Origin: Corbicula japonica
Taxonomy: Eukaryota > Mollusca > Bivalvia > Venerida > Cyrenidae
Assembly: GCA_038501625.1 (NCBI GenBank)
Contig: JAZAYU010000366.1
Location: 1-64,000 of the forward strand
Direction: 5' to 3'
DNA: 64,000 nucleotides
Shown here: piece after piece, positions 3 through 50,800 of the stretch
Layout of the letters: each line of letters begins with the position of its first letter
Position numbering within the stretch: position 1 is the first letter of the stretch
Translations under genes and position numbers: made by a program
The notes under the pieces: model-generated
The model's database searches: none
What the model was told of the DNA's origin: nothing
The model's input: the letters and a program-made list of their open reading frames with translations, nothing else

Positions 3-3000
3 GACACTGATTTCTATGGGATTCCTCCACCCACCCAGCTTAACCAGATTATTATCCCGATAGCTAGTGCAGTAACCGTCGGTATTGCTTTTTTGGCCGT
101 CGGTCTAAATATGTGGAGGTAAGTTGGAAATAAAACATTCCTTGCTTCATAATTAACTGTTTACTCTATTGATATAGCGTATAAGTAATAGATACTTTTT
201 CTTGTTTTAATACCATTTTGTTCATTTCCTTTACTTCACATGTATAACATCTTTTCAGCAAAAAGAAGGAAGCTGAAATAAGGCGTCAGAAAATTATAGA
301 ACAGAGAAGGAAATCATCAAAACAGAAAAAACAAACCCCGGTATACAATGTCGGAGGTGATCCTTATCCTGTTGGTGGCATAGATGGTAAAAAGTATGTT
401 TGTTTTCTATTATTTTAATCCATTATTTCATAAATACGACCTTATTGGCATGGGGGAAGAGCGTAAATAAATATCCGCTGGCACATCCATGTCACCTGAT
501 CAGTGTCCAAGGTTATAAAACTGAGTATGGAAACCAGTCTCAAATCTCAAGCATCTGACCAGTTGCCATTTCTGTCAATCACATGTTTGAGATTTGAGAC
601 TGGTTTCCAATCTCAGTTTTATAACCTTTACCCCAGAATCAACACTTATTGCTTCTAAATTCATTAGAATATTTCTGACCAAGATGCAAACAGTGCAGAT
701 CAGCCTGTACATCCGTGAAGTCAGATCAGGGTCTACACTGTACAATATTCAGTCGTAGACATTAACTTCATGGATAAGGCTTTAATCACCTGAGTAAATA
801 GTGTAGATCTAGATCAGCTTGCATGTCTGTGACATCTGATCTGGATCAACACTATTAACTATTAACTGTGACATCTGATCAGGATCAAAACTACTTAGAT
901 TCATTAGGACCAAGAAGATTAGATCCTGATCAGACTGCACAGATGTGCTTCCTGAGCAGATCCGTATCTACACTGGTTGTCCATGTGAACCCACTTTCTG
1001 GGCAGCAATATTTGATTTTAATGGGTACTCTGGCTAGAAAGTTGGAGAAAATCATGTAACTATCCCAATTCTGTCTCAAAAATACCCCCTTTCTGGAAAT
1101 CTTGCGTCCAACCCTGCTGTGGTCTATCAAAAGGAGACAGGGGTTCACCCTTGACCCTTTCCTCCATATATGCATTTTGACGCATGTGTGACCAGTGTAG
1201 ATCCAGATCAGCTGGCACATCCGTGCTGATCTGGATCTAAACTGGTCGCCCACACAATAAAAGTGTGTCTATGGAGAAAAGGGTTAAGATATAGCTTGAA
1301 CTACTCTTTTCTTATTCGTCACTTCTGAGTGTTTATGTGCTTTTAATCACTTCTAACCTGTAGTCACCTTTTTTTACAGCCAGAAACCAAAACGGTATGT
1401 TATTTATGTGCATCGTAGTTTTGCTTCTACCCAGATATTAGAGATTAGTTTTTATTCAAACATTTTAACTCTTTACTCCTTGAGATACGACTGTTTTCCA
1501 ATGTTGAACAGTTACAGTGTAGATCGTGATCTGCCAGCACATTCATGCTATCTGACAAGGATCTACACTGTTTGCTTGTAGATTCATTTGGTTATTATCC
1601 CCTGCCGATGAAATCAGGAGGGTGATATTGTTTTGGTGTCCGTCCATCCGTCACGCGTCCGTCCATCCGAATTTCGTTTCCGCGCTATTTCTCTGCAACC
1701 ACCGGATGGATATTAACGAAACTTTGTGGGAACCATAAGTACCAAGAGGAGATGGGCATATCGTCGTCTTGTTCATGTCAGACCATTTAACACAGAGTTA
1801 TGGCCCTTTGATAACCTATGCATTATGCATATAGAGCAGTATTCGTTTCCGCGCTATTTCTCTGCAACTACTGGAATGATTTCAATGAATCTTTCTGAGA
1901 ACCCACAATACCAAGAGGAGATGCGCATATTGTTGTCTTGTTCTGGTCAGACTGTTTAACACAGTTATTGCCCTTTGATAACTTATGCATTATGCATATA
2001 GAGCAGTATTCGTTTCCGTGCTATTTCTCTGCAACTATTGGATGGATTTCAATGAAACTTTCTGGGAACCATCAATACCAAAAGGAGATGTGCATGTCAT
2101 CTTCTTGTTCCTGCAGACCATTTAACACAGAGTAATGGCCTTTTGATGACTTATGCATGATGCATATAGAGCAGTATTTGTATTCGCACTATTTCTCTGC
2201 AACTACAGGATGGATTTCAATGAAACTTTCAGGGAAACATCAATACCGAGAGGAGATGCGCATATTGTCGTCTTTTTTCTGGTCAGACTGTTAAACACAG
2301 AGTTATTGCCTTTTGATAACTAATGCATTATGCATATAGAGCAGTATTCGTTTCCGCACTATTTCTCTGCAACTACCAGATGGATTTCAATGAAACTTTC
2401 TGGGAGCCATCAATACCCAGAGTAGATGCGCATATCATTCCGGTCAGACTGTTTAACACAAAGTTATGGCCCTTTGATAACTAATGAATTATGCATATAG
2501 AGCAGTATTTGTTTCCATGCTATTTCTCTGCAACTACCAGATGGATTTCAATGAAACTTTCTGAGAGCCATCAATACCCAGAGTAGATGCGCATATCATT
2601 CCAGTCAAACTGTTAAACACAGAGTTATGGCCATTTGATAACTTATGCATTATGCATATAGAGCAGTATTTGTTTCCGTGCTATTTCTCTGCAACTACCA
2701 GATGGATTTCAATGAAACTTTCTGGGAGCCATCAATATCCAGAGGAGATGCGCATATCATTCCGGTCAGACTGTTTAAAACAGAGTTATGGCCCTTTGAT
2801 AACTAATGAATTATGCATATAGAGCAGTATTTGTTTCCGTGCTATTTCTCTGCAACTACCAGATGGATTTAAATGAAACTTTCTGGGAGCCATCAATACC
2901 AAGAGGAGATGTGCATAATATAGTCTTGTTCCAATCAGACTGTGTAACACAAAGTTATGGCCATTTGATAACTTATGCATTATGCATATACAGCAGTATT

Positions 3001-6000
3001 CGTTTCTGGGCTATTTCTCTGCAACTACTGGATGGATTTCAATGAATGTATCTGGAAACGCTTATTGTCGTCCTGTTCCAGTCAGATCCTTTAACACAGA
3101 GTTATGGCCCATTGATAAGTTAAGCATTTTGCATGTAGAGCAGTATTCATTTCCTTGCTATTTCTCTGCAACTACTGGATGGATTTCAATGAATTTATGG
3201 AAACCATCAATACCAAGACAAGATGCCCATATTGTTGTCTTGTTCTGGTCTGACCGTTTAACACAGAGTTATGGCCCTTTGATAAGTTATGCACTATGCA
3301 TATAGAGTAGTATTCGTTTCGGCGCTACTTCTCTGCAACTATTGCATGGATTTCAATTAAATACCGCGCTATTTTTTTTACTACTGCCCTCTTCATTTCA
3401 ACAACTTGAAGACTTTACGTCTCATTCTTATATTCTGGTGAGCTGCCCAACCCTTTTCACCATCTGAAGTTTTTTATGCTCCCCGAAGAAATCAGGGGGA
3501 GCATATAGTCACCGGGGTGTCCGTCCGTCCGTCCGTGAATCCGTTCGTCCGTACGTCCCATTTTGTTTCTGGCCCATAACTTTTTTATTTGAAGTCGGAT
3601 TTTCAAATTATTCACAGAAATGATCACCATTATGAGACAACGTGTCGCGCGCAACATTTGGGTCGCTACCTTGAAGGTCAAGGTCACAGCATGACCTGGC
3701 AGCAAAATCATGTCCGACCCATAACTTTTTTTATCGGATTTTAAAATTATTTCACAGAAATGATCACCATAATGAGACGAGGTGTCACACGCAGCATTTG
3801 GGTCACTACCTTGAAGGTCAAGGTTACAGCATGACCTTGAAGCAAAATTGTGTCTGTCCCATAACTTTTTTATTTGAAGTCGGATTTTCAAATTATTTCA
3901 CAGAAATGATCACCATAATGAGACGATGTGTTGCACGCAACATTTGGGTTGCTACCTTGAAGGTCAAGGTCACAGCATGACATTGCAGTAAAATCATGCC
4001 CATAACTTTTTTATTTGAAATCGGATTTTAACATTTATTCACAGAAATGATCACAATAATGAGATGACGTGTCACGCGTGACATTTGGGTCTCTACCTTG
4101 AACGTCAATGTCACATCAAAATCGTTTCCTGTCTATAACGTTGTTATTTATAGTTGGATTTAAAAATTATTTCACACAAATGATCACCATATCGATGTGA
4201 CATGTCACACAACATTTTGGTTGCTTCCTTCAAGGTCAAAGTCACAGCATGAACTTGAAGCTTAATTATGTCAGGTCCGTTACTTTGTTATTTATAGTTG
4301 GATTTTAAAATTGTATGATTTTATAGCACTACACTTTTTTCAAAATTCACCTCAATAGTTATACAACTAACTGTTTTTGTGACAAAGCACCCATTCGGGG
4401 AGCATCACCCGTCTTCAACGGTTTCTTGTTTTTCACTGTTTTTGCCATGATAAATATCTAAATAAAGCCTCATGTCTTCATCTGTTGTGTTAGTAATAAC
4501 CAGTACTCGGCGGGGGATATAAGTTAAACGAATTTTCTTGTTCTGACCAAGAAGCAAACTGCTTCCAATCACAAAACAATACCGTTATTTGAAGTAAGAT
4601 AATTCAATACGTTGTAGGCTTTTAGACACAAAAAGAGGTCACATTTTTAGGACCTTGATTTTTCGCAAAGTTTTATTACTTTATAGACTGGGAAAGGATA
4701 TAAGGAGTAAAGGGTTAAAAACTTAAAATGTGTTTCCCTATCCTCAGTAATACAAACATACAGATACAATAAAACCCCTCATTACGGACACTTGATATTA
4801 CGGGCACCCCGGTATTATGGCCGACTTCTTGATTTAAACCCACAATTAAGGACAACCCGGTATTAATAACAATTTCTCTCAGCCCCTTAGGTGTCTGTTA
4901 TAGAGGGGTTTCACTGTACCTCATATTGTATATAGGTGTTAAACAAAAGGGCACAACAATTGTTGTCAGTAGCATATTGCTCATGTGGGCATTTTAATGG
5001 TGTTTTGTGTTGTTTACTTTTTGTGTTTGTGGGTAAATAGAATTTTAAGTAATTTTAAGATCTAGTCATGTTTCTTTACCATTCTAACTTTGCTTAACAT
5101 ATGCAAAAAAAGATACCTTAATAACATTTATTTGTGCTAAGTTTTATTAAACAGCATTTTGGCGTTAGATAGAATTATTATTTGTATCGATGACAATGGA
5201 ATGACTGTTGTAGATGGCCCTTAACCCTTTCCTCCATATGTACGCACTTTTACGCATTTGCGACCAGTGTAGATCCAGAGTAGCCGGCACATTTATGCCA
5301 TCTGATCAGGATCTGCACTGGTCGCATTTTGGTCAGAAATAACCTAATGAATCAAAAAGCGAACAGTTTAGATCCTGATCAGACGGCACGGATGTGCCGG
5401 CTGATCTGGATCTAAACTGTTCGCCCTAGAAATAAAGGTGTATCTAAACAGGAAAGGGTTAAGTTAATACATGTACTGTGTGTAAAGGGTTTTAGTTACC
5501 ATTATTTCAAGTGCTTTTAACCCTTTACTAAACCCTTTCCTCCATAGATACACCTTTATTGCGTGGGCGAACAGTTTAGATCCAGATCAGCCAGCACATC
5601 TTTGCTGTCTGATCAGGATCTAAACTGAACGTTTTTTTTTTGTTAGGTTATTTCTGACCAAAATGCGACCAGTGCAGATATTGATCAGACAGCACGGATG
5701 TACCGGCTGATCTGGAGCTACACTGGTAGTAACATGCATAAAAAAGTATTTATGGAGGAAAGGGTTAATGGGATATGGCTGTTATCTATGGGTGAAAAGT
5801 GCCAGTCTGAGATAAACTGGCACATTTGTACCATCTGAACTAGATCTACAATGTTTATTTCATGGAATATGTAACCTGATAAATCTAAAAACAAACATTG
5901 TTGATTCTGATCAGACGATCTGACCTGGATTTACGTTGTTCGTTCATGGAATATGAGCAATATCCCATGGAGTATAAAGGTCAGTTAACGCTTTCCTCCA

Positions 6001-15000: not shown

Positions 15001-18000
15001 CATGGGCGAACAGTGTAGATCCAGATCAGCTGGCACATCCGTGCCATCTGATTAGGATCTGCATGGTTCACTTTTTTATAAATTAGGTTACAAGTATTAC
15101 TGACCAAAAAGCAAACAGTGCAGATCCTGATCAGACGGCATGGATGTGCTGGCATGGTCTCACATGCGTAAAAAAGTGTATATATGAAGGAAAGAGTTAA
15201 ATTTTATCACAGATAAAACTTATCTGACCTGAAAGTACATTGTAGTTAAAACAAGTGTACTCTTGTAAACTGACCGGAGTTGAAACTTACCTGAAACAGG
15301 TTTCTTTTTTGGAAATGTTGCATCCAACCCTAATTGTCCCTTAATAATTTTGCTTTTTTTTTCCTATTTTCAGATCTAAGTCCAAAGAAAACATGGAAGG
15401 GATGACTAATGGTACATTCCAGCATACAGGTACTATTTCTTAACCCTTTCCTGTATAGATAAACCTTTATTGCTAGGGCGAACAGTTTAGTTCTAACCCT
15501 TTCCTCCATATACACACCTTTATGGCATGGGCGAACAGTGTAGATCCAGATCAGCTGGCACATCTGTCATCTGATTAGGATCTGCATGGTTCACTTTTTG
15601 ATAAATTAGGTTACTAGTATTACTGACCAAAATGCAAGCAGTGCAGATCCTGATCAGTTGACACGGATGTGCCGGCTGATCTAGATCTACACTCGTGACT
15701 GGTGCCATTGCGTAAAAATGCGTATATATCAAGGAAAGGGTTAAAAGCTAATGCTAGAGAGAGAAAAATGTGCAATAGCTTGCAGGTGGGGATGTATTCA
15801 AAGGGGATTCAATGGGTTTGACAGGTTGTTGTAAACCTGTGTAGATCTTCTGATCAGAATCTACACAGATTTACAATAACAAACTGCCTTTTTGACCAGC
15901 TTTATTTAATTTTCATGGGGATTTTTACCAGTTGAAAATTGTGATGTAATACCATAAGACTGCCCCAAAATGAACCCCCTTTCTGAAATCTTGCATTCAA
16001 CCCAGAAGTTGCCTTTAAGACATGGTAATTTAGATGAAATAATTTGTTAATAATTTTCATGAAGTTTGCTTGTAAATATTCAAACTCAGATACCCCTCAT
16101 TTGGGTAACAAATTTAGATATTCCATACAGAGCGTGCGATATTTTGTATTATTTCCATTTGTCATTTTATTCTGCTCTTCCAAAATATCATATAATGTGA
16201 ATACATCTTTTAAACCTTTCCTGTATAGATACACCTTTATTGCTAGGGCAACAGTTTAGATCCAGATCAGCCGGCACATCCGTGCCATCTGATCAGGATC
16301 TAAATTGTTTGCTTTTTGATTCATTAGGTTATTTCTGACCAAAATGCGACCAGTGCACATCCGTGCCGTCTTATCTGGATCTACACTGGTCGCATATGCG
16401 TAAAAATGCGTATATATCAAGGAAAGGGTTAAGAAGTACAGTGAGTCTTTTTACAGTGGAGCAATGAAGTGTGAATATATACAGGTTTTATGCCATGTGC
16501 TGTCAGTATAGACACAATTTAGAACCTTATCAGTGAGCATGGTTGTGCCAGCTAATCGTAATCTACACTATTTGACAGGATAAAAGAAATAGTTGTTGTC
16601 TATATTATCATATTAACATAACATTGTAATGGTTTATAATTGAAAGTACTAACTGGTAAAGGATCTATTTTTAGCTCACCTGAGCACTTGTGCTCATGGT
16701 GAGCTTTTAGGATCGCCCTGTGTCCGTCGTGCGTCGTGCTTCGTCACTTTTTGCTTGAAACAACATCTCCTCTTAAACCCCTGGGCCAAAGTTGATGAAA
16801 CTTGCCACGGATGTTCCTTGCATGAAGCTCTTCCAAAGTTGTTCAAAGATATCAATTCCATGCAGAACTCTGGTTGCCATGGCAACCGAAAGGAAAAACT
16901 TTAAAAATCTTCTTCTCTGAAACCACAAGGCCTAGAGCTTAGATATTTGGCATTTAGCACCCTCTAGTTGAACTCTGCAAAGATTGTTCAAATTATTTCC
17001 CTGGGATCAAAATTGGCCCCGCCCCAGGGGTCACTTCATTTTATATAGACTTATATAGGAAAAACTTTAAAAATCTTCTTGTCTGAAACCACAAGGCCTA
17101 GAGCTTAGATATTTGGCATTTAGCATACTCTAGTGGAAATCTACAAAGATTGTTCAAATTATTTCCCTGGGGTCAAAATTGGCCCCGCCCCAGGGGTCAC
17201 TTCATTTTATATAGACTTATATAGGAAAAAACTTTAAAAATCTATTTGACTGAAACCACAAGGCCTAGAGCTTAGATATTTGGCATTTAGCACCCTCTAG
17301 TAGAACTCTACAAAGATTGTTCAAATTATTTCCCTGGGGTCAAAATTGGCCCCGCCCCAGGGGTCAATTCATTTTATATAGACTTATATAGGAAAAACTT
17401 TAAAAATCTTCTTGTCTGAAACCACAAGGCCTAGAGCTTAGATATTTGGCATTTAGCACCTTCTAGTGGAACTCTACAAAGATTGTTCAAATTATTTCCC
17501 TGGGGTCAAAATTGGCCCCGCCCCAGGGGTCACTTCATTTTATATAGACTTACATAGGAAAAACTTTAAAAATCTTCTTGTCTGAAACCACAAGGCCTAG
17601 AGCTTAGATATTTGGCATTTAGCATCCTCTAGTGGAACTCTACAAAGATTGTTCAAATTATTTCCCTGGGGTCAAAATTGGCCCCGCCCCAGGGGTCACT
17701 TCATTTTATATAGACTTATATAGGAAAAAACTTTAAAAATCTATTTGACTGAAACCACAAGGCCTAGAGCTTAGATATTTGGCATTTAGCACCCTCTAGT
17801 GGAACTCTACAAAGATTGTTCAAACTATTTCCCTGGGGTCAAAATTGGCCCCGCCCCAGGGGTCACTTCATTTTATATAGACTTATATAGGAAAAACTTT
17901 AAAAATCTTCTTGTCCGAAACCACAAGGCCTAGAGCTTAGATATTTGGCATTTAGCACCCTCTAGTGGAACTCTACACAGATTGTTCAAATTATTTCCCT

Positions 18001-21000
18001 GGGGTCAAAATTGGCCCCGCCCCAGGGGTCACTTCATTTTATATAGACTTATATAGGAAAAACTTTAAAAATCTTCTTATCTGAAACCACAAGGCCTAGA
18101 GCTGAGATATTTGGCATTTAGCACCCTCTAGTGGAACTCTACAAAGATTGTTCAAATTATTTCCCTGGGGTCAAAATTGGCCCTTGCCCAGGGGTCACTT
18201 CATTTTACATAGACTTATATAGGAAACCTTTAAAAAGCTTCTTCTCACAAACCACAATGCGTACAGCTTAGATATTTTGTAAGTAGCATTTTCTAATGGA
18301 TGTCTACTAAATTTGTTCAAATTATGTCCCCTGGGCCAAAATCTGCCACGCCCTAGGGTTCTCTTGGTTTACATACAGTTATATAGGAAAAACATGGAAA
18401 ATCATTTTTCTCCGAAACTAATAGGACTAGACCTTAGATATTTGGTGTTGAGTATTTTGAAGAGACCCTTTACCAACATTGTTTAAATGTTGACCCTGGG
18501 GTCAAAATTGGCCCTGTCCTGGGGGCCCTAAATATGTAAAAAAGGAAAACTTTAAAAATCTTTCTACTGGAAACCTCAATGCCTTAAGCTTACATATTTG
18601 GTATGTAGCATTGTCTAGTGGATGTCTACCAAGTTTGTTCAAATTATGTCCCCTGGGCCGAAATTGGCGACACCCCAGGGTTCTCTTAGTTTTCATTGAT
18701 TTATATAGGAAAGCATGAAAAATCATTTTTATCCGAAACTAATACGACTAGACCTTAGATATTTGGTGTTGAGTATTTTGAAGAGACCCTTTACCAACAT
18801 TGTTTAAATGTTGGCCCTGGGGTCAATATTGGCCCCGCCCCAGGGTCCCTTAATATGTAAAAAGGCAATTTTTAAAAATCTTCTTACTGGAAACCTCAAT
18901 GCCTTAAGCTTACATATTTGGTATGTAGCATTGTCTAGTGGATACTTACCAAGTTTGTTCAAATTATGTCCCCTGGGCCAAAATTGGCCACGCCCCAGGG
19001 TTCTCTTAGTTTACATTGATTTATATAGGAAAACATAAATAATCATTTTTCTCTGAAACTAATGCGACTAGACCTTAGGTATTTCGTTTTGAGTATTGTG
19101 AAGAGAACCTTTACCAGCATTATTTAAATGTAGGCCCTTGGGTAAAGCTGAGAGTACTTTTGTACTGAGGTGAGCAATATAGGGCCATCATGGCCCTCTT
19201 GTTTAAGGTTTCCATATTTTTCCACTTATAAGACAAGGAAATTGGGATCCAATTTCAATTAAAAAAAAATATCGGGCCCACTAGCAAAGCCAAGAGAATG
19301 CAAAAGAAATTCAATAAAGCCTATTGTCAGGGGGATAATGTTTTCAATCAGTCCAGTTATCAATTATGCTGTTGAAGGTTGTTGAGCACGATACTTTTTT
19401 TGTACTTGACAGTTCTTCTAAAATTACTTTTGTTTTAACATTTCGGCCAGTTTTAAGATGGGTGGTTTCAATGCCCCTGCCAATTTTTGATACAAAACGC
19501 TGATTTCAGGGGGAAAGATAGGGCATTGTCATATAAGCGTGTGGCCTTATAAGCGGTACAATATGGTAAATGCAAGTTTTTAGTTGTGTATAACAAAACT
19601 CCTCTTGCTTTCAGAGCGTGGTTTGATTATAATGACACATTACAACCATTAAGTATGTTTCAATTTGCTGATTAACTTATTAACCCTTTCCTGTATAGAT
19701 ACACCGTTATTGCTAGGACGAACAGTTTAGATCCAGATCAGCCAGCACATCCGTGTTTGATCAGGATCTAAACTGTTCACTATCAGTACAGCAGAGATAG
19801 GCACATTAGACAATTATCCGAATAAAAAAATAACTTGAATTAATTATAATTGAATTATGATTCTTTTATTTAAGTGACACAAACTGGCTTTTCACAAGTT
19901 CATTTTTGACATAGAGGAAATTAAACCAGTTTTATTTTAAAAGAATTAATTCTGAGTGTATTAAGAACATTATCTAACTAGTTAAACTACTGTAGTATCA
20001 TTTAATTTTGCGGGGACGAAATTTAGCACAAAACCCGTAAATAACAAATTTGCGGGGGCATAAATTCACACAACTGTATTTACCTTTAAAGAAAATGTTT
20101 AATGGTTTAATTTCCCTGGCGTTAAATTTCGTGCTCTTGTCGTAGCACGAAATATGCAAAAATTAAACCAGCGCGAAAAAAAAGGATTAAACAGTAACTA
20201 ACAGATGAACCAAAAAATATGGGACACATTTCAACTATTTCAACCATTCAGATGCTTAAGATTTGAGACTGGTTTCTTTGCTCCATTTGTCTCTGAACAG
20301 CTGATGTCAGTTCTTGAAATGACGTTATAAATTGAGCATATGGCGTTACTTATTATCCAAATTTGCATAAAAATTTAGTCATCATTAATTGATATCACTG
20401 AATTGTATTTTTTTTTTGGATATAATGTTTGAGATTGTGATATAGTGCCTATGTATCTGCTTTACTGTAACTTGTTACAAGTAGTGACCACTCCTTGTTC
20501 TAGTGAGATACAGGGGTCATGCAGTTTTTAAACATTCTATACAAGGCAAAATGGGATAGGCTGGGAAGAACTTTCTATCATGTGTTAACCCTTTACTCCA
20601 TAAATTCAGGTTTTATCAGATGTACAACCCATGTAGATCCAGATCAGCCATCACATATATTTGCTGACTGATGTTTATCTTAACTGTTGCCCTTTATTGA
20701 GAAATAGCCCAATGAATCTAAAAATAAAAATAACAGAATGATCGTGATTCTTTGTAAAAGTGATTTCTTTGGTTGAAAGAAACAGATTAAATTCATTAGC
20801 TCTAATTGCCTAAAGGAACTGTAGGGTTTATTTCATAGTTTAAAATCTGCATCAGATCATTCAGTCATTTCCCATTTTGCCATGTGCCTAACAAATTATT
20901 AGTAATTTAATACATTTTTGAAATGGAAAGATTGCCTTAACAGGTTTTCTTGACATTGTATATTACATCTTCGTAAACAAATAGTAAACAGAATAACAAT

Positions 21001-27583: not shown

Positions 27584-30500
27584 CTAACCATAAATTTCAC
27601 AGATATAGTGAAATGGATAAGTGCAGTTATGGTCGTTCCATCCATACCGCGGTGCATTTACAATCTGGGCACAGTTCTCGCCGCCGAACGCGTTATTGGG
27701 CTCTCCACCACCCCAGTGCGACACGACCTTTTCTTTAGTTCTCCACCAGCGCCATACACCTTCGATTTCAAGATCGTTTGCCCCAATCCAGTAATACCTT
27801 CCTAAACGTAATGAAAAAGATATTTGTTATTTAATTTTGTTTATAAACACGTTATAGAAATATGTTTATAAAAAGTTACAGAAATATGTTTATTAACACG
27901 TTATAGAAAAATGTTTATAAACACGTTACAGAAACATGTTTATAAACACGTTACAGAAATATGTTTATAAACACGTTACAGATACATGTTTATAAACACG
28001 TTACCGAAACATGTTTATAAACACGTTATAGAAAAATGTTTATAAACACGTTACAGAAACATGTTTATAAACACGTTACAGAAACATGTTTATAAACACG
28101 TTACAGAAACATGTTTATAAACACGTTACAGAAATATGTTTATAAACACGTTATAGAAATATGTTAATAAATATGTTATTAAGGTATGTTTATAAAAACG
28201 CGTTACAGAAATATGTTTATAAACAGGTTACAGAAATATGTTCATAAAAAGTTACAGAAATATGATTATCAACACGTTATAGAAATATGTTAATAAATAT
28301 GTGATAAAGGTATGTTTATAAAAAAACACGTTACAGAAATATGTTTATAAACAGGTTACAGCAATATGTTTATAAACAAGTTACAGAAACATTTTTATGA
28401 ACACGTCATTATGTATGTTTATAAAAACACGTTACAGCAATATGGTTATAAACAGGTTACAGAAATATGTTTATAAAACGTTACAGAAATACGTTTATTA
28501 ACACGTTATAAAGAAATATGTTTATATACACGTTTCAGAAACATGTTTATAAACTCGTTACAGAAACATGTTTATAAACTCGTTACAGAAACATGTTTAT
28601 AAACACGTTATAAAGGTATGCTTATAAAAACAGGTTACAGAAATTTGTTTATAAACAGGTTACAGAAATATGTTTATGAACTTGTTACAAAAATATGTTT
28701 TTAAACACGTTATAGGAATATTTGTAGGAGAAGGTTATAGAAATATGTTATATAATTGTCACAAATATGTTTATAAAAACGTAACAGAAATAGAATAAAA
28801 CATGCTACAAACACTAATCTTTTTTACCAAAGCAGCTTTTATTAAGTTTCTATTATACAGAATTAAATTACTACAAGTTTGTTCTCAACCGTCGCCACAT
28901 ACCTTTGATTTCAAGGTAGTCACCAACCCAGTAGGTTTGTAAATAATATTGAAAAATATCGATTTTGTTTTTTGTTTATAAAAACGTTATAGAAATAGAA
29001 AAAAACCTGCTTTAAGCACTAATATAAGACCTAAGAAATAGTTGGTTTGTTTTTTTTAAAACCGTACTTAGTTTGAACACATGCAAATTAGTCATGTTAT
29101 AGAGTATTTAGAGGCCGAAATAACATGTGTACTAAAATTTTACTGAATGCACCGGCATAAACTGTAGATGCAATTATATGATATATAATCATAAAAGTTT
29201 GAGGTTTTCCTTTTGTCACAATATTCATTTGTTCTTAATTTCGCGGAACTCAATTTTGTAAACAATGTATGTTCAAGTCTACTTCCTGGATTGATCTACC
29301 CAAGAAATCCACGAAACTTAGTACCCTGTGAATATTTTATTTTACAGTACCTGGTAATTTCACCACTTCTGTTTCCAGGAAAATTTCCTCTTCTTGTGTT
29401 TCTATTTCAACAAGATGTCCTCCGTATCCCGGACATATCAACTAAAATCAAATATTTTATAGTTATAAATATATACACTCAACAAAAGTTCTTATTGGTC
29501 ATCAATTGTATTTGTTTACAATGCATGCTAGTTTCGTTTCTTCCCTACGTCAAGAGAGGTTGTGGAAAGAATTTTTTTGTCTTGAAGTCAGTTCTCTAAT
29601 GTCTTTTTAATCTTTATTCATTGTTTTCTTTAATAAATCCAATACCATTTACTCACACCGCATGGTCAAAATAAGAACAGTCTTTAATTGAAAGGGAGCT
29701 AATTTTAAAATTTGATACTTTGAAGGGGATTTATTTAAACAAATGTGCTGTTGATTATTAAGTGTTTATGTTTTCCTACTAATGAGGGGTCCTATAAAAG
29801 AAAACTAGAGATTTAGAGCGAATTTCTGTTTGCTTGACCTTTTTATGCAAGAATTGCATTTTTAGCAAAACTAAGGATAACTCTCAACAAACTGTTCCAA
29901 AGTCAATTATTTCAATATTAAAGTTTAAGTTGAAGACTGTTGTTTGCATATAATCATAAATAAAAAGTGAATTCAATGTCTTTCTAATAATAAAATACGA
30001 ACAAAAAGTGACCAATTAGAACTTTTTTTGAGTGTATTATATATTATGGCGTAAATATCGTTAACATGTGCGTATGAAAATACATAATCAAACCGAGCCT
30101 GCCGTAGTTTTATATTTGCCGTGTCTGATAGCTTTAAGGTATTGCGACCTTCGCCATTGATTTGCCGTAGGCAAAAAAGGAGAAATATAAAAAAATCTCT
30201 TGAACAACACAATGCACTTCCATCAAACTTTGCACACACAAATGTTATTAATATATACTCGGCAAAAAAAGTTCTGCACACTTGGACTTTTTATAAAATA
30301 TATTTTTAATTTCACCATACACAACAAAATGATACATACCAAATAAATCAGCAATTCAATGTTAACAATGTAAACAAGTCCGAAATAAAATCCGTTCAAT
30401 ACTTGTTAAGCAATTCATTGTTATAGCCACTGGTGGTTACTACACAAAAGTTGCAAAAATCGCTAGACTTATACTGAGTAAATTCACCACGATGAATCCG

Positions 30501-41865: not shown

Positions 41866-44800
41866 TCATAAAGATTCGTTTCCCGAATCTCGCTTATAAT
41901 AACTGTAAAGAAGATAGAAAAAAAGAAGGTATGTATTACATCCCGGTAGGCAGTACGAAACGGACTTAGTCTAATGGTTTACCTTGGTTTTTCACAGATG
42001 TAGTTTTGAGAGTGGTCACATTCCTCATCATTCCATCCTGGAATTACCCTCAGATCCATACAATTTTCATTCGTCCGGAGATTATTAGGCTCGCCCTTCA
42101 GCCAGTTAGTGTAGTCGAATGGTGCGTTTGAGTTTACCCACTCCCAGTCATTTTCGTTCATCAAATCGTTGCCACCGACCCAATGGTTTACTATAGCAAA
42201 GCAGTTATATAAAGGTTTATAGATTGCAAACAGGAAAAATGCTAAACTGACGAAGGCTACATCATTTTGACCACTGTTTATCTTAAGGTAATGTTTTCGA
42301 AATGCATGGCTTAAATGACACTGGCAGACGAACGAGAAAGAGAAGAAAATGATACTATTGTCATGACCATGTAAAAACACTCGTGATCATTTATAATAAT
42401 GAAACAAGACCTTTAAGTCTCTGAACATTGCTCTGCAGAAACGTATCTTCCTTCGCAGAGTTGATGTCTGCCAGGTGAGCTCCGTGCGTCTGACAGAACA
42501 TCTGAAAGTACAGCGAAGCCCGAGTCCAAGATATAAATTGAGGTTGGAGACAAGTTTTCAATCTCAAACACCTGATTGGTTAAAATTTAGACGAGTGTTT
42601 AAACTGACCAATCAGCAATGAGCTACTGCGAGACAGCGATTCCGCTGCACATTAATGAGGGGTCAATAAAAGGATAAGCATCAGATTATACTTTTGAGGA
42701 CAAAAAATATTTTACGTACTAACTTATTCTATTTACACATCATTTTAATTATTCGAAACAAACGTTTATGTAATTAAAAAAGTGAAATATGCATATCCGC
42801 AATAGCCACATCCAGATGGTCTTTGCAAACAGCCAAAAGCAGGCAGGAAAAGAAAACATGAACTTCTATATATATAACAATTTTAAAACGAAGGCCGCCA
42901 AAAATTCACGAAAATTGGAACCCGGGAGATTTACAGCCTTCAAACGATCAGTGGCAAATCATTTTGCCAATAAAAAGGAAAACAGTAGAAGTTTCGTTTC
43001 ATTTACGACATATAGCTAACAATTTGCAAAATACCTTCAAATAACGTGACACGCTTATTAACACAAAGTTTCGTAAAGATTTAACCTACCTACGAGGTCT
43101 TATTAATGATCCAAGCACTTAAATTATTCCTACCTACGAGATCTTTAATAAATGAAAACTTTATATTATATTTTAAAGAATATAATAAAAGCATGTACCT
43201 GTGCTAGCATCCAGGGCTCTGTATCATGACTGAAGTGGTAGCAACTCTCCTCATACCGAATCCATCCTGAGGGACAGTCCGCTCCGACTGCACAAGAAAT
43301 TAAGGCATTCATTTTAAAAGTTAAGTCACGGATCAAGTGCAGTACGTCAACAACGCACGCTCTAGCAATTCAATCCACGTATCAAACAATTATATAAGTA
43401 GTATTCCTCGGCCCGTTCAGGAGAGTGCCTGCTGCCCTGCTGCTACACACGTGACTGCGCACGGACAATGGGGAGGGTATCATATGACCGAGCACGAACA
43501 ATGGGGGTGGCGTCGTATTACGGAAACCCATCGGTCGCACCCTAGTTTAATTATTGAGTCATCTATTATGACACGGCCAATGGTTTTAGGTTACATTCCA
43601 TCACCTTTATTCCGAAGGTGACTCATTCAGATTCGAAACAATTCAACCTCTATTATTTATATAATTTTATGAATGTCATAACGCACCTATACGATTATCA
43701 TAACCATATCGAATGTCGTGTTATTATAACCATACGTGTACCCATTGAAAAGAACATCGAGGTCATTGATACTCCGGTGTCAGTTACCTCGTGTGCGTGA
43801 AGCGTGTTAGATCAAAGATAGATAACGAAAACAACCTTTAAAGAGTTTGATGATACTATATTCACCATTTTAAACCAATTAAATAGAACTTGTATAACAT
43901 GTTTATAATTTTGTACATATATGTGATTTGTTAATTAGTTCACCTCAAATATTTTACAATCTTGTGAATACAATAATTTTAACCGTGATTATATTCACTT
44001 AAAATCGGATTTCATTTTATTTTAAGTGTGTCCAGTGAAAGAGCTCCAAGTTCATTTACCTCGTGTGCAGGAAGCGTGATTGATCAAAGAAAAAATAGCG
44101 AAAATGTGTCAACAAGCTTCAAAGCGTTGAATTATTAATAAAATCACCTAAAATTCAGCCTTTCATTTCATTTAGTGAATAGAACCGAATGCAGAATACG
44201 TAATCTAATCGGGTGACTTAAATAAATTTTGTTAATGTCTCTAAAAAATACAACCGTATTACCGCCCGAACTATGTAAACAAATGTTCCGCGATTTAGTT
44301 AAGAAACCCTGGATATCGTTAAAAAACATTTTGGACTATGAACTTTACACCGTAGTTTTGAATTACATTATGCCCGAGGATTGTAACGTTACACTGAAAG
44401 GGGAAGAAAATATTAAAGAATGGTTATCTCGAACGCAAACATTCCAAAATTTCAAAGATCTGGTTGAAAAAGCGGTTTTAGTAGGTGACTGCAACATCAA
44501 TCTAGATGCAATTAATGCTAGAGATTGGCACCAGTATGTTTGCGAAAATGTTAGGGTGTATGACTCGGTCAAGGACTGGATAAGAGGCGGCGGTTTTACT
44601 TACAAAAGGCACTGGGCATGCTTAAATCAATCCGAAGATAGGAGAGAGGATATGTGGCGTTTGCTCGCATTGGCATGATTCACACCTTACACTATTTGAT
44701 CAGTTTCGACCTATATGCGAAATAATTAAAATATAATAGTGACTTAAACCAAAAGAGATAGGTGGTATAATATATCGATCATTGACTGCTTGGGTGTCGA

Positions 44801-47800
44801 AGAGTCAAGACGTGCGTTAGAAACATGGACTTATTGGATTACAAAGACATTACGAGGATACGTAAGAAGAAGATGAAAAGACGCAGGAATAAAAACGAAC
44901 AGAGACCTCAGTCTGAATTTTATGTTAAAATGGTTTTACCGGCAGAGCAGACAACCGCTATAGCTAAAAGTATGCTCGAACGTCAAGCTAAACCTAAAGA
45001 TGTATCAATTATAGGTCAGAAAGAAATGCAACCCACCAATGAAAAAGTCAGGAATTCAAAAATAAGTGATAAAGACGGGAAGAGTAAGACATCAAGACAG
45101 GAACTGCCCTCTGTCGGAGGAAATAGAAAAGAGAACGCAGGTGAACTTCGCAACATCGTAATTATAGGACGAGTATTAAGTTGAATGATTCATTCACTTC
45201 TCCTCATTCTTGTTTAAAACGTCGAAGAGGATGTATCGGTGCGACATTTGTTTGAAAACTTTTGGGAGAAAGGATAATATGTTGCGACATAAACATTTAG
45301 CGCATTCAGATATGGATTCGGATGAAGACGTACCAATGGATCGGGATATTTTTGGGCCCATAAACGACAATGAGTCAAGCCACAGTGACAGTGATGACGA
45401 TACATCTGTCACTTCGGAGGATCCTTTGGAGTTCGATCCTTGGAAATACATTGTAGAACAAGCGTATCAAGAGAACCAGTCGGAGTATGAATCTTCGGTT
45501 AATGAGCTTATGGAGAAAGATGCCGACATCAGTGAATCTGAAGCCAAAGAAAACGTTTTTAGAAGTATGAAAAGCACCTACAGGAGAGCAATGATGAACA
45601 GCCTTGCGAAAGAATTGATTTGGTTTGATGCCATGAAAAACGATCCTATCTACAAATCTATAAAAAAAACAATTAGTCACCTGATTGATACAGATGGGTA
45701 CGACAAGGACGAAGCTTTTAAATACGGAATACTCAAGCGACAGTTTCTTTTTGACAAGGTCCTAGAAACATACCAAATTCCAAAGCTGGAAAGAGGGGAT
45801 GCCATGGAACAAGATGATGAATCTGAATGAGTGTTTAAAACGTGATGCAGATAGTTACGGACGCTATAGGGCGACCGCGAGTATTTCAGGATAAAAAACG
45901 TTTAAATGCGTTGAGTGCAAGGGTTCATCGTCCCTTGTTTGTAAACATTATCACGAGACTGACAGACGTCATCGTTGAAAACATGAGATGTCGATGTATC
46001 TAAAGATGTATACATGTATATATAAGTATTCGTGGATTGCTAATTAATAAATCTTTAGAGAAATCTTACGTGACAATAATGACAATTCATCTTACTTTAG
46101 TAGCTTGTAATCTTATCCGTTAAAATGTGAAGATACAGATGTAACTGCTACAATTATGATACGAATAAAATCGATGAAACCATCTTTTTGTTGAGTCTAT
46201 TCTATATCTCAATTAATCACATTCTATTTACCTACACGAACGTAACTTAATTACTTACCCAACAATCATTAAGTACATGCCCGTACATCTCTCACACTCA
46301 TCATGCCTCCTCATTCCCTCCTCATTCACTCCTCATGCCTCCTCTTTCACTCCTCATACCTCCTCATTCACTCCTCATGCCTCCTCTTTCACTCCTCATG
46401 CCTCCTCATTCCCTCCTCATGCCTCCTCTTTCCCTCCTCATACCCTCCTCATGCCCTTCTCATGCCTCCTCTTTCATTCCTCATGCCTCCTCTTTCACTC
46501 CTCATACCTCCTCTTTCCCTCCTCATTTACTCCTCATGCCTCCTCATTCACTCCTCATGCCTCCTCTTTCACTCGTCATGCCTCCTCTTTCCCTCCTCAT
46601 ACCTCCTCTTTCCCTCCTCATGCTCTTCTCATGCCTCCTCTTTCACTCCTCATGCCTCCTCTTTCACTCCTCATACCTCCTCATTCACTCCTCATACCTC
46701 CTCACTCACTCCTCATACCTCCTCTTTCACTTCTCATGCCTCCTCATAACTCCTCTTTCACTCCTCATGCCTCCTCATTCACTCCTCATACCTACTCTTT
46801 CACTCCTCATGCCTCCTTGTGCTTAATATAATTGACTATAGACCCATGGAGACCATTGCCAGAAACAGTCACATGCAATGGTCTCCATGGGTCTATAGTC
46901 AATTATATTAAGCACAAGGAGGCATGAGGAGTGAAAGAGTAGGTATGAGGAGTGAATGAGGAGGCATGAGGAGTGAAAGAGGAGTTATGAGGAGGCATGA
47001 GAAGTGAAAGAGGAGGTATGAGGAGTGAGTGAGGAGGTATGAGGAGTGAATGAGGAGGTATGAGGAGTGAAAGAGGAGGCATGAGGAGTGAAAGAGGAGG
47101 CATGAGAAGGGCATGACTCAATATACATGTATACATCTTTAGATACATCGACATCTCATGTTTTCAACGATGACGTCTGTCAGTCTCGTGATAATGTTTA
47201 CAAACAAGGGACGATGAACCCTTGCACTCAACGCATTTAAACGTTTTTTATCCTGAAATACTCGCGGTCGCCCTATAGCGTCCGTAACTATCTGCATCAC
47301 GTTTTAAACACTCATTCAGATTCATCATCTTGTTCCATGGCATCCCCTCTTTCCAGCTTTGGAATTTGGTATGTTTCTAGGACCTTGTCAAAAAGAAACT
47401 GTCGCTTGAGTATTCCGTATTTAAAAGCTTCGTCCTTGTCGTACCCATCTGTATCAATCAGGTGACTAATTGTTTTTTTTATAGATTTGTAGATAGGATC
47501 GTTTTTCATGGCATCAAACCAAATCAATTCTTTCGCAAGGCTGTTCATCATTGCTCTCCTGTAGGTGCTTTTCATACTTCTAAAAACGTTTTCTTTGGCT
47601 TCAGATTCACTGATGTCGGCATCTTTCTCCATAAGCTCATTAACCGAAGATTCATACTCCGACTGGTTCTCTTGATACGCTTGTTCTACAATGTATTTCC
47701 AAGGATCGAACTCCAAAGGATCCTCCGAAGTGACAGATGTATCGTCATCACTGTCACTGTGGCTTGACTCATTGTCGTTTATGGGCCCAAAAATATCCCG

Positions 47801-50800
47801 ATCCATTGGTACGTCTTCATCCGAATCCATATCTGAATGCGCTAAATGTTTATGTCGCAACATATTATCCTTTCTCCCAAAAGTTTTCAAACAAATGTCG
47901 CACCGATACATCCTCTTCGACGTTTTAAACAAGAATGAGGAGAAGTGAATGAATCATTCAACTTAATACTCGTCCTATAATTACGATGTTGCGAAGTTCA
48001 CCTGCGTTCTCTTTTCTATTTCCTCCGACAGAGGGCAGTTCCTGTCTTGATGTCTTACTCTTCCCGTCTTTATCACTTATTTTTGAATTCCTGACTTTTT
48101 CATTGGTGGGTTGCATTTCTTTCTGACCTATAATTGATACATCTTTAGGTTTAGCTTGACGTTCGAGCATACTTTTAGCTATAGCGGTTGTCTGCTCTGC
48201 CGGTAAAACCATTTTAACATAAAATTCAGACTGAGGTCTCTGTTCGTTTTTATTCCTGCGTCTTTTCATCTTCTTCTTACGTATCCTCGTAATGTCTTTG
48301 TAATCCAATAAGTCCATGTTTCTAACGCACGTCTTGACTCTTCGACACCCAAGCAGTCAATGATCGATATATTATACCACCTATCTCTTTTGGTTTAAGT
48401 CACTATTATATTTTAATTATTTCGCATATAGGTCGAAACTGATCAAATAGTGTAAGGTGTGAATCATGCCAATGCGAGCAAACGCCACATATCCTCTCTC
48501 CTATCTTCGGATTGATTTAAGCATGCCCAGTGCCTTTTGTAAGTAAAACCGCCGCCTCTTATCCAGTCCTTGACCGAGTCATACACCCTAACATTTTCGC
48601 AAACATACTGGTGCCAATCTCTAGCATTAATTGCATCTAGATTGATGTTGCAGTCACCTACTAAAACCGCTTTTTCAACCAGATCTTTGAAATTTTGGAA
48701 TGTTTGCGTTCGAGATAACCATTCTTTAATATTTTCTTCCCCTTTCAGTGTAACGTTACAATCCTCGGGCATAATGTAATTCAAAACTACGGTGTAAAGT
48801 TCATAGTCCAAAATGTTTTTTAACGATATCCAGGGTTTCTTAACTAAATCGCGGAACATTTGTTTACATAGTTCGGGCGGTAATACGGTTGTATTTTTAG
48901 AGACATTAACAAAATTTATTTAAGTCACCCGATTAGATTACGTATTCTGCATTCGGTTCTATTCACTAAATGAAATGAAAGGCTGAATTTTAGGTGATTT
49001 TATTAATAATTCAACGCTTTGAAGCTTGTTGACACATTTTCGCTATTTTTTCTTTGATCAATCACGCTTCCTGCACACGAGGTAAATGAACTTGGAGCTC
49101 TTTCACTGGACACACTTAAAATAAAATGAAATCCGATTTTAAGTGAATATAATCACGGTTAAAATTATTGTATTCACAAGATTGTAAAATATTTGAGGTG
49201 AACTAATTAACAAATCACATATATGTACAAAATTATAAACATGTTATACAAGTTCTATTTAATTGGTTTAAAATGGTGAATATAGTATCATCAAACTCTT
49301 TAAAGGTTGTTTTCGTTATCTATCTTTGATCTAACACGCTTCACGCACACGAGGTAACTGACACCGGAGTATCAATGACCTCGATGTTCTTTTCAATGGG
49401 TACACGTATGGTTATAATAACACGACATTCGATATGGTTATGATAATCGTATAGGTGCGTTATGACATTCATAAAATTATATAAATAATAGAGGTTGAAT
49501 TGTTTCGAATCTGAATGAGTCACCTTCGGAATAAAGGTGATGGAATGTAACCTAAAACCATTGGCCGTGTCATAATAGATGACTCAATAATTAAACTAGG
49601 GTGCGACCGATGGGTTTCCGTAATACGACGCCACCCCAATTGCTCGTGCTCGGTCATATGATACCCTCCCCATTGTTCGTGCGCGGTCACGCGTCTAGCT
49701 CCAGGGCTGCAGGCAGATGACTCATAGGGAAACATAGGGAAACTAGGGTGGTGCTGATGACATCATAGCACGGTAATACGATGCCACCCCCATTGTTCGT
49801 GCTCGGTCATATGGCACCTTCCCCATTGTCCGTGCGCAGTCACGTGTGTAGCAGCAGGGCAGCAGGCACTCTCCTGAACGGGCCGAGGAATACTACTTAT
49901 ATACGTGCGCAACGCATAGAAGACTACCCCGGCTGATGAATTTCAAACAATTATATACGTACGCAACTCATAGAAGACTACCCCGGCTGATGAATTTCAA
50001 ACAATAATATACGTACGCAACTCATAGAAGATTACCCCGGCTGATGAATTTCAAACAATTATATACGTACGCAACTCATAGAAAACTACCTCGGCTGATG
50101 AATTTCAAACAATTATATACGTACGCAACTCATAGAAGACTACCCCGGCTGATGAATTTCAAACAATTATATACGTGCGCAACTCATAGAAGACTACCCC
50201 GGCTGATGACTTTCAAACAATTATATACGTGCGCAACTCATAGAAGACTACCCCGGCTGATGACTTTCAAACAATTATATACGTGCGCAACTTATAGAAG
50301 TCTACCCCGGCTGATGAATTTGGAAGGTGCTCCACGGCCGGCTTTTTAAATCAGAAATGAAATGCGAGATCGGAACATTGTATATTCATTTTACACATTT
50401 AATTTGTTTAAAAGTACCCTTTTTAATTTTCGAGGTTATTCAGTACATATATTACTGTTTCAAGTTAACAATCTTGAACGATGCGTTTTATGACCGGCGA
50501 GCTTTTCAGACAGCTAAAACTTGTTTTTCTCTTCATAATAGTTCAAGTGACTTAGTAATTCAAATTTGGAGATTTTTGTAAATAATAAATGGTAAGAAAA
50601 ACGTTTGAAATCTTCATGGACACTGGTTTTTGTTCGGATCTTGAATACACGATTTAATCATTAATGATGGGTTGAGCAAATGATGGGTTGAGCAAACTCA
50701 AACTACTGCATTCTTGTAAATTTTAATACATGTAGCCGAACTCTTTTAAATCATTAAAGCTTTATAAATTAAACAAGTATTATTAATTAATTGATCATAC

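What the first reader, a model, noticed from the sequence alone, without database searches (positions are those of the whole stretch)
43397..49897. A 6.5-kb, almost perfect palindrome with Polinton-type ends and three mirrored genes
Seen: identical AG...CT ends, TATATA on both sides, two inverted ~3-kb arms around a 15-nt centre, and three ORFs duplicated in mirror image with identical proteins for two of them. Known: Polintons/Mavericks have AG...CT ends and 6-bp target duplications. Inferred: a non-autonomous Polinton relative whose whole body is an inverted duplication of one end. I know of no described Polinton with this design and gene content.
Basis: partly seen in the sequence, partly recalled or inferred. 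Interest (0 to 1): 0.88.

Follow-up and report, generated by a model that had tools for sequence, protein, structure and literature searches.

The report
Palindromic snap-back Polinton, non-autonomous family
A 6.5-kb mirror-image jumping element carries the ends of a Maverick/Polinton virus-like transposon and belongs to several families of such palindromes in one genome, which suggests that these transposons copy themselves through folded-back DNA strands that later re-enter the chromosome.

Summary
In detail: 43397-49897 is a 6501-bp palindrome (arms 3463/3023 bp, 3 mismatches in 2870 aligned bases, four indels, 15-nt loop) with (AGT)2...(ACT)2 ends and the 6-bp duplication TATATA. It belongs to a family: its centre occurs in 8 further places of the genome, counting one longer-loop variant, and 12 of 12 scored insertions (window included) have exact 6-bp duplications. 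The same genome holds Polintons with integrase and protein-primed polymerase. One (C55, 11.6 kb) has the same end motif and a 6-bp duplication; another (C70) has sequence homologous to the window's terminal region at both ends. The Polinton-type reading is supported; 'inverted duplication of one end' of a known Polinton is not proven. The window element encodes neither integrase nor polymerase, and no listed ORF3 match lies within 20 kb of a listed one. New: palindromes arose repeatedly, with different centres and polarities, from the integrase end too. Arms differ at 0-12 of about 1350 sites within five elements; 8 of the 10 pairs of elements differ at 44-126. Asymmetries shared between elements lie only within about 42 nt of the loop. 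Best explanation: snap-back replication intermediates of Polintons, reintegrated by Polinton integrase; one lineage keeps a conserved zinc-finger gene.

The parts
43391..43396 (.). left copy of the 6-bp target duplication TATATA
43397..46859 (+). left arm (terminal region-ORF1-ORF2-ORF3-minisatellite), starts AGTAGT
43397..44005 (+). terminal region; positions 133-606 and short blocks are homologous to both ends of the C70 Polinton and to the integrase-side subterminal region of the C55 Polinton
44235..44678 (+). ORF1, 147 aa, no Pfam family; without stop in 6 of 7 full-length copies picked, broken alike in both arms of L022 and L023
44825..45184 (+). ORF2, 119 aa, basic, no Pfam family, dN/dS 0.77-1.01
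45210..45830 (+). ORF3, 206 aa counted from TTG (199 aa from the first ATG): one C2H2-like zinc finger (below Pfam cut-offs), acidic stretch, C-terminal part; without stop in 9 of 9 copies picked as near full-length; dN/dS 0.04-0.48
46295..46817 (+). CCTCAT-type minisatellite next to the centre (left arm)
46860..46874 (+). 15-nt loop CAGAAACAGTCACAT at the palindrome centre, shared by the family
46875..49897 (-). right arm, mirror of the left; 592 bp of array and neighbour missing, 153 bp extra near the end
47312..47932 (-). mirrored ORF3, protein identical
47958..48317 (-). mirrored ORF2, protein identical
48464..48898 (-). mirrored ORF1, one A fewer at its start
49898..49903 (.). right copy of the 6-bp target duplication TATATA; the site is the first unit of a 54-bp satellite

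Best explanation
It is a non-autonomous, palindromic element of Maverick/Polinton type. Shown: Polinton-type ends, 6-bp target duplications, terminal sequence shared with Polintons of the same genome, recurrent palindromes with different centres, and arms that agree within an element far better than between most elements. Inferred: Polintons replicate as linear DNA from both ends by a protein-primed polymerase; a displaced or broken strand folds back near a short inverted repeat and primes copying of its own arm. The product is a self-complementary genome with the replication end at both termini. The Polinton polymerase can copy it and the Polinton integrase can insert it, both in trans. Fold-back repeated in later cycles makes one arm the template of the other, so the arms stay alike, while bases between the loop and the priming point keep their asymmetry. 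The window lineage retains ORF3, perhaps a DNA-binding protein useful to its own spread.
For: Ends and duplications: 12 of 12 scored; vertebrate Mavericks have 5'-(AGT)2//(ACT)2-3' ends and 6-bp duplications (passages of PMC8097293). Relatives with INT and pPolB: C55:2050848-2062418 with duplication AAAATT and C70 with window-like sequence at both ends. Recurrence: window centre (8 exact-loop places, plus the longer-loop variant L016); opposite-polarity centre on C273 and 4 more places; INT-end palindromes L040 and L035. A duplication GATCAG predicted for C273 from one end was found at the other, one hit in 1.07 Gb. Arms within elements differ at 0, 4, 0, 3, 12 of 1340-1359 sites. A broken ORF1 is mirrored in both arms of L022 and L023. 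Asymmetries shared in the same phase lie only 12, 17 and about 42 nt from the loop.
Against: No free linear or hairpin molecule was seen. The polarity near the loop rests on two clear sites and one uncertain (in a minisatellite); the 12-nt asymmetry is present in 6 of 9 centres read and absent in the window, L016 and C24. Gene conversion in place would also make arms alike. No intact parent carrying ORF1-3 with INT or pPolB was found. L009's arms are no closer to each other (4 differences) than to the window's (4). In C55 the window-like sequence is not part of its terminal repeat but lies just inside it on one side. L042, a distant mirrored ORF2-ORF3 pair, shows no (AGT)2 ends or duplication at its arm edges.
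Confidence: 0.66

Rival explanations
1. The palindromes are ordinary long-TIR, foldback-like non-autonomous Polintons, mobilised by the integrase, whose arms are kept alike by gene conversion in the chromosome, without a special replication form.
For: Arms are alike within elements; gene conversion between inverted repeats is well known (recalled). Long-TIR relatives that are not full palindromes exist (L020, L024, L026).
Against: L028 keeps 40 mismatches between its arms, nearly all private, and a 296-bp indel; the window keeps 422-, 170- and 153-bp indels, so conversion in place is not efficient. It does not explain why palindromes arose anew with other centres.
Confidence: 0.22
2. The palindromes formed by host break repair or template switching at inverted repeats in an integrated Polinton and were then transposed by cut-and-paste.
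For: By eye, the L041 centre holds a ~40-bp inverted copy of the ORF1 3' region bounded by CCGCGAGCAA/TTGCTCGCGG, as template switching would leave.
Against: A host event would not by itself place a working Polinton end at both termini so regularly, nor keep arms alike in later lineages.
Confidence: 0.09
3. Assembly artefact: reads that turn round at a hairpin were joined into false palindromes.
For: Inverted joins are a known artefact (recalled); contig C972 starts inside a palindrome (L016).
Against: Different flanks with exact 6-bp duplications at 12 of 12 scored loci, private indels between arms, and a duplication predicted and then found for C273.
Confidence: 0.03

Closest known systems
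Maverick/Polinton transposons (polintoviruses)
   Same: (AGT)2...(ACT)2 ends, 6-bp target duplication, terminal sequence homologous to INT+pPolB elements of the same genome
   Different: no integrase or polymerase found in the element; whole body palindromic; private ORF1-3
Snap-back (5'-SBG, 3'-SBG) and deletion genomes of adeno-associated virus (PMC8235507, passages seen)
   Same: self-complementary genomes from either end beside internal-deletion genomes; here window and L041 types, INT-end types, and small elements with ORF1-3 and INT pieces fused (L026, L029, L031, L033, L034)
   Different: AAV uses terminal hairpins and Rep, not protein priming; those forms are packaged molecules, these are chromosomal insertions
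Palindromic defective genomes of adenoviruses and of linear killer plasmids (recalled, no call)
   Same: protein-primed linear replicons with one end duplicated in mirror image
   Different: not integrated; not a long-lived family with its own conserved gene
Foldback/Galileo-type transposons (recalled; a Galileo paper was seen only in the listing)
   Same: very long inverted repeats
   Different: other transposase superfamily and target duplication (recalled); ends here are of Polinton type

Membership tests
Maverick/Polinton | (AGT)2//(ACT)2 end motif (one of those described) | tested here: met
   window and 11 relatives (L013 has AATAGT on one side); motif described in PMC8097293
Maverick/Polinton | 6-bp target site duplication | tested here: met
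   12 of 12 scored; 2 of 14 tried (L014, L027) had no AGTAGT at the ends and were not scored
Maverick/Polinton | terminal repeats homologous to Polintons with INT and pPolB | tested here: met
   C55 sequence homologous to window arm 133-606 (77%) is found at both ends of the C70 element, which has INT and pPolB matches between; in C55 itself it lies inside the TIR on one side only. The left terminus of C70 was not read
Maverick/Polinton | encodes an rve-type integrase | tested here: not met
   no such Pfam match in ORF1-3; no INT match listed on the window's contig. So it is filed as a non-autonomous Polinton-type derivative, not as a Polinton proper
Maverick/Polinton | encodes protein-primed DNA polymerase B | tested here: not met
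Maverick/Polinton | capsid, protease and packaging ATPase genes | tested here: inconclusive
   only ORF1-3 were scanned against Pfam, none found; divergent proteins could be missed
Snap-back genome of a linear replicon | self-complementary body with the same terminus at both ends | tested here: met
Snap-back genome of a linear replicon | arises from either end of the parent | tested here: inconclusive
   INT-end palindromes L035 and L040 and ORF1-3 palindromes exist, but no intact parent with both gene sets was found
Snap-back genome of a linear replicon | exists as an extrachromosomal hairpin or linear palindrome | not testable with these tools
   no reads or DNA
Foldback/Galileo (P superfamily) | target duplication of another length and P-type transposase partner | tested here: not met
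   6-bp duplications and Polinton-type relatives; no search for P-type transposases was made and the Foldback values are recalled

The most novel reading that the evidence does not exclude
Polintons of this genome replicate as linear DNA outside the chromosome and repeatedly shed snap-back genomes from both ends. One such form has become a stable palindromic satellite lineage with its own conserved zinc-finger gene, whose two arms are renewed from one another by hairpin-primed synthesis in each mobilisation cycle. The inserted copies are a fossil record of a replication mode not yet observed directly for Polintons.
Probability: 0.37. Interest if true: 0.87.

Novelty: new variant of a known kind. 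Interest (0 to 1): 0.72.

Why it matters
Polintons are inferred from their polymerase to copy themselves as linear DNA, but I recall no described replication intermediate. Recurrent palindromic insertions with arms renewed from one another, except next to the loop, are the trace that fold-back of displaced strands would leave. They give a concrete test: look for hairpin or palindromic linear Polinton DNA. They also suggest that virus-like transposons carry satellites of their own. Seven searches of the open-licence PMC library listed no palindromic or snap-back Polinton; I judged by titles and abstract starts, and most subscription papers are not in that library.

Tried and rejected
ORF3 as a known fold: the AlphaFold model has mean pLDDT 50 and no viral-library match at E <= 0.001; not used. 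Relatives in IMG/VR: none confirmed for ORF3 (76 pattern stretches) or ORF1 (1 stretch). ORF3 has 12 metagenome relatives on short contigs, ORF1 one. ORF2 as a selected gene: dN/dS 0.77-1.01 in the 7 pairs with a value, so no evidence of function. L042 as a further Polinton palindrome: no (AGT)2 ends or duplication at its arm edges, not counted. L025/L037 as the autonomous partner: polymerase-like pieces (named by eye; Pfam did not call them) beside a homologous end, a BEL-type retrotransposon-like frame inside (named from recall), other end not found; the C55 and C70 elements were used instead. The pattern for the left end of C70 with its expected duplication did not complete. Confidence was lowered slightly (0.68 to 0.66, novel case 0.38 to 0.37, rival 1 raised from 0.20 to 0.22) for the C55 correction and the centres without the asymmetry.
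Full report
Observation. The window stretch 43397-49897 is a 6501-bp palindrome. Its arms (43397-46859 and 46875-49897) have 3 mismatches in 2870 aligned bases and four indels, around a 15-nt loop at 46860-46874. Both ends read AGTAGTATTCC inwards. TATATA flanks both sides; the right flank is a 54-bp satellite whose unit reads across the site, as a true target duplication would. Three ORFs are mirrored. The ORF2 and ORF3 proteins are identical; the right ORF1 has one A fewer at its start.

Family. The window lies in a 1.07-Gb assembly. The first kilobase of the arm has 126 matches there (40 of 109 candidates scored), many as mirrored pairs. I fetched 28 regions and tried 14 elements (the window and 13 of the 28 loci, those with inverted repeats at or near both ends). 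Twelve had recognisable AGTAGT-type ends, and all 12 had an exact 6-bp duplication, no two alike; L014 and L027 had no such ends and were not scored. The 12 comprise palindromes (window, L009, L022, L023, L028; L035 of the INT end), rearranged ones (L010, L013, L015) and long-TIR elements that are not full palindromes (L020, L024, L026).

Polinton identity. Vertebrate Mavericks are described with 5'-(AGT)2//(ACT)2-3' ends and 6-bp duplications (PMC8097293, passages). The genome has 166 matches to the polymerase family PF03175 (83 of 211 candidates scored, not all listed). A chromodomain piece found beside the terminal region in L029 has 150 matches (150 of 255 candidates scored). In many places it lies 5-6 kb from a polymerase match and in opposite orientation, for example on C55, C70, C79, C263, C50, C310, C170, C1079, C210 and C5. 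I read it as the C-terminus of a Polinton integrase: in L040 it follows an rve-like domain (E 1.8e-6, below the curated cut-off). The C55 element runs from 2050848 to 2062418 (11,571 bp), with AGTAGT...ACTACT ends, the duplication AAAATT, a terminal repeat 98% alike over 575 bp, INT and pPolB. The sequence that it shares with the window arm (77% over arm positions 133-606, plus short blocks) lies just inside that repeat, on the INT side only. The C70 element carries this sequence at both ends (3571468-3572094 and 3581404-3582039), with INT and pPolB matches between; its right terminus is (ACT)2 at 3582190, its left terminus was not reached. Capsid genes were not looked for, and the window element itself has no INT or polymerase.

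Where ORF1-3 come from. Of 95 ORF3 matches (150 of 186 candidates scored) none lies within 20 kb of a listed polymerase match (nearest about 38 kb, C87) or a listed INT match; these comparisons were made by eye on capped lists. Yet L029, L031, L033 and L034 carry an ORF1 tail, ORF2 and the first 14-17 residues of ORF3 fused to the INT C-terminus, and L026 has an ORF1 tail fused to it. A window-type centre on C24 (1049555) lies 3.5 kb from an INT match and 15 kb from a polymerase match; only 151 bases could be read there, and they are palindromic (57 of 60 positions agree). So a parent with both gene sets is possible but was not seen.

Recurrent palindromes. L041 (C273) is a palindrome with another centre and opposite polarity: ORF2 and ORF3 (74% identical to the window's ORF3) point outwards. 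From its right end (ACTACT then GATCAG) I predicted GATCAG-AGTAGT at its left end. The 24-nt pattern has one hit in the genome, at C273:498289, on the predicted side, none on the other strand and none for the reversed control. The element is thus 498295-506449, 8155 bp; the first 905 bp were not read. Its centre occurs at 5 places (C14, C273, C275, C518, C4), 4 exact and 1 with one mismatch. L040 is a palindrome of the INT end with a zinc-finger/P-loop-like ORF and INT ORFs mirrored (3422 aligned bases, 20 mismatches; the P-loop label is by eye, Pfam support is weak). L035 is a shorter INT-end palindrome (1994 aligned, 10 mismatches). In one search, eight INT pairs lie mirrored within 10 kb with C-termini outwards (C49, C1026, C565, C284, C635, C1073, C4 twice) and one inwards (C1214), counted by eye; only C49 (L040) and C4:4.37M (L035) were read as sequence.

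Arms. In a core of about 1350 sites, arms differ within elements at 0 (window), 4 (L009), 0 (L022), 3 (L023) and 12 (L028) sites. Of the 10 pairs of these five elements, 8 differ at 44-126 sites; the close pairs are window-L009 (4) and L022-L023 (2-5). L010_R, L013_R and L015 were dropped by a length filter. The tree pairs the arms of L009, L022, L023 and L028 by element; the window's arms are identical. L009 does not discriminate, since its arms are as far from each other as from the window's. L022 and L023 carry the same stop and one-base deletion in ORF1 in all four arms (the deletion also in both arms of L028), so changes reached both arms before or during mobilisation. L028, with 40 mismatches and a 296-bp indel between its arms, shows that arms drift after insertion.

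The centre. The motif of stem and 15-nt loop occurs at 8 places (7 exact, 1 with one mismatch; 3 on one strand, 5 on the other; none for the reversed control): C16, C40, C320, C366 (window), C742 twice, C874 and C24, that is L010, L012, L028, the window, L022, L023, L009 and one new place. L016 has a longer loop. A one-base asymmetry 12 nt from the loop is shared in the same phase by L009, L010, L012, L022, L023 and L028; the window, L016 and C24 are symmetric there. A G/A asymmetry at 17 nt is shared by L022, L023 and L028. A ten-arm alignment adds one possible shared site near 42 nt; of its 77 columns that are asymmetric in two or more elements, 74 are gap columns that were not interpreted, and one further substitution column has different states. 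This polarity is what hairpin priming just beyond the loop predicts: the primer keeps its own bases, and everything outside is recopied.

Selection. ORF3 has no stop in 9 of 9 copies, but these were picked as near full-length; broken or partial copies exist (L011, L012, L015, one arm of L013, L024; matches with stops). Its dN/dS is 0.04-0.48 (2 of 28 pairs without a value). ORF2 gives 0.77-1.01 and ORF1 0-0.92 on few changes. ORF3 has 12 metagenome relatives at 53-91% identity. I infer a protein kept by selection, perhaps DNA-binding; no usable fold was obtained.

Mechanism. Shown: palindromes, Polinton-type ends and duplications, relatives with integrase and polymerase, recurrence, concerted arms. 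Inferred: linear protein-primed copying, fold-back of a displaced strand, copying of one arm from the other, integration in trans. The mixture of full elements, mirror genomes of different origins and fused deletion elements resembles the snap-back and deletion genomes of AAV (PMC8235507, passages). Several centres lie in or beside low-complexity arrays (window CCTCAT, L040 GCGCATTTAGGAGCG, L035 CCG/CCA), which may stall copying or result from it.

Limits. Counts from the genome searches are lower bounds. L023 and L032 contain N stretches (428 and 500 bases). No reads, no extrachromosomal DNA and no second species were available.

Noticed in passing
window 49897-50321: 54-bp satellite (7.9 copies, 95% matches); the palindrome inserted in its first unit.
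   Followed up: partly
window 1673-3361, 16891-19059, 27838-28792: Other long tandem arrays (periods about 161, 166/333 and 25 bp).
   Followed up: no
window 41979-42380 (-): ORF with a C-type lectin domain (Lectin_C E 1.2e-11).
   Followed up: no
L042 1190-4631 (C4:10403200-10409000): Mirrored ORF2-like and ORF3-like genes (ORF3 37% identical), arms of 1278 bp with 100% identity around an 887-bp spacer, no target duplication seen: perhaps a distant palindromic lineage.
   Followed up: partly
L047 (C24:1049496-1049646): A further window-type palindrome centre, 3.5 kb from an integrase match and 15 kb from a polymerase match; a possible link between palindrome and Polinton.
   Followed up: partly
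C14:8830184, C273:502561, C275:590597, C518:90680, C4:12731052: The L041-type centre is on the + strand at all 5 places; probably chance.
   Followed up: no
L040, L035, L031, L033 and window 46295-46817: Minisatellite or trinucleotide arrays sit at palindrome centres and beside deletion junctions.
   Followed up: partly
C152:1295383-1302773 and 1345545-1352576: Two INT+pPolB match pairs with equal scores in mirror orientation about 43 kb apart.
   Followed up: no
L016 (C972:1-9000): Contig C972 starts inside the second arm of a palindrome, as if the palindrome broke the assembly.
   Followed up: no
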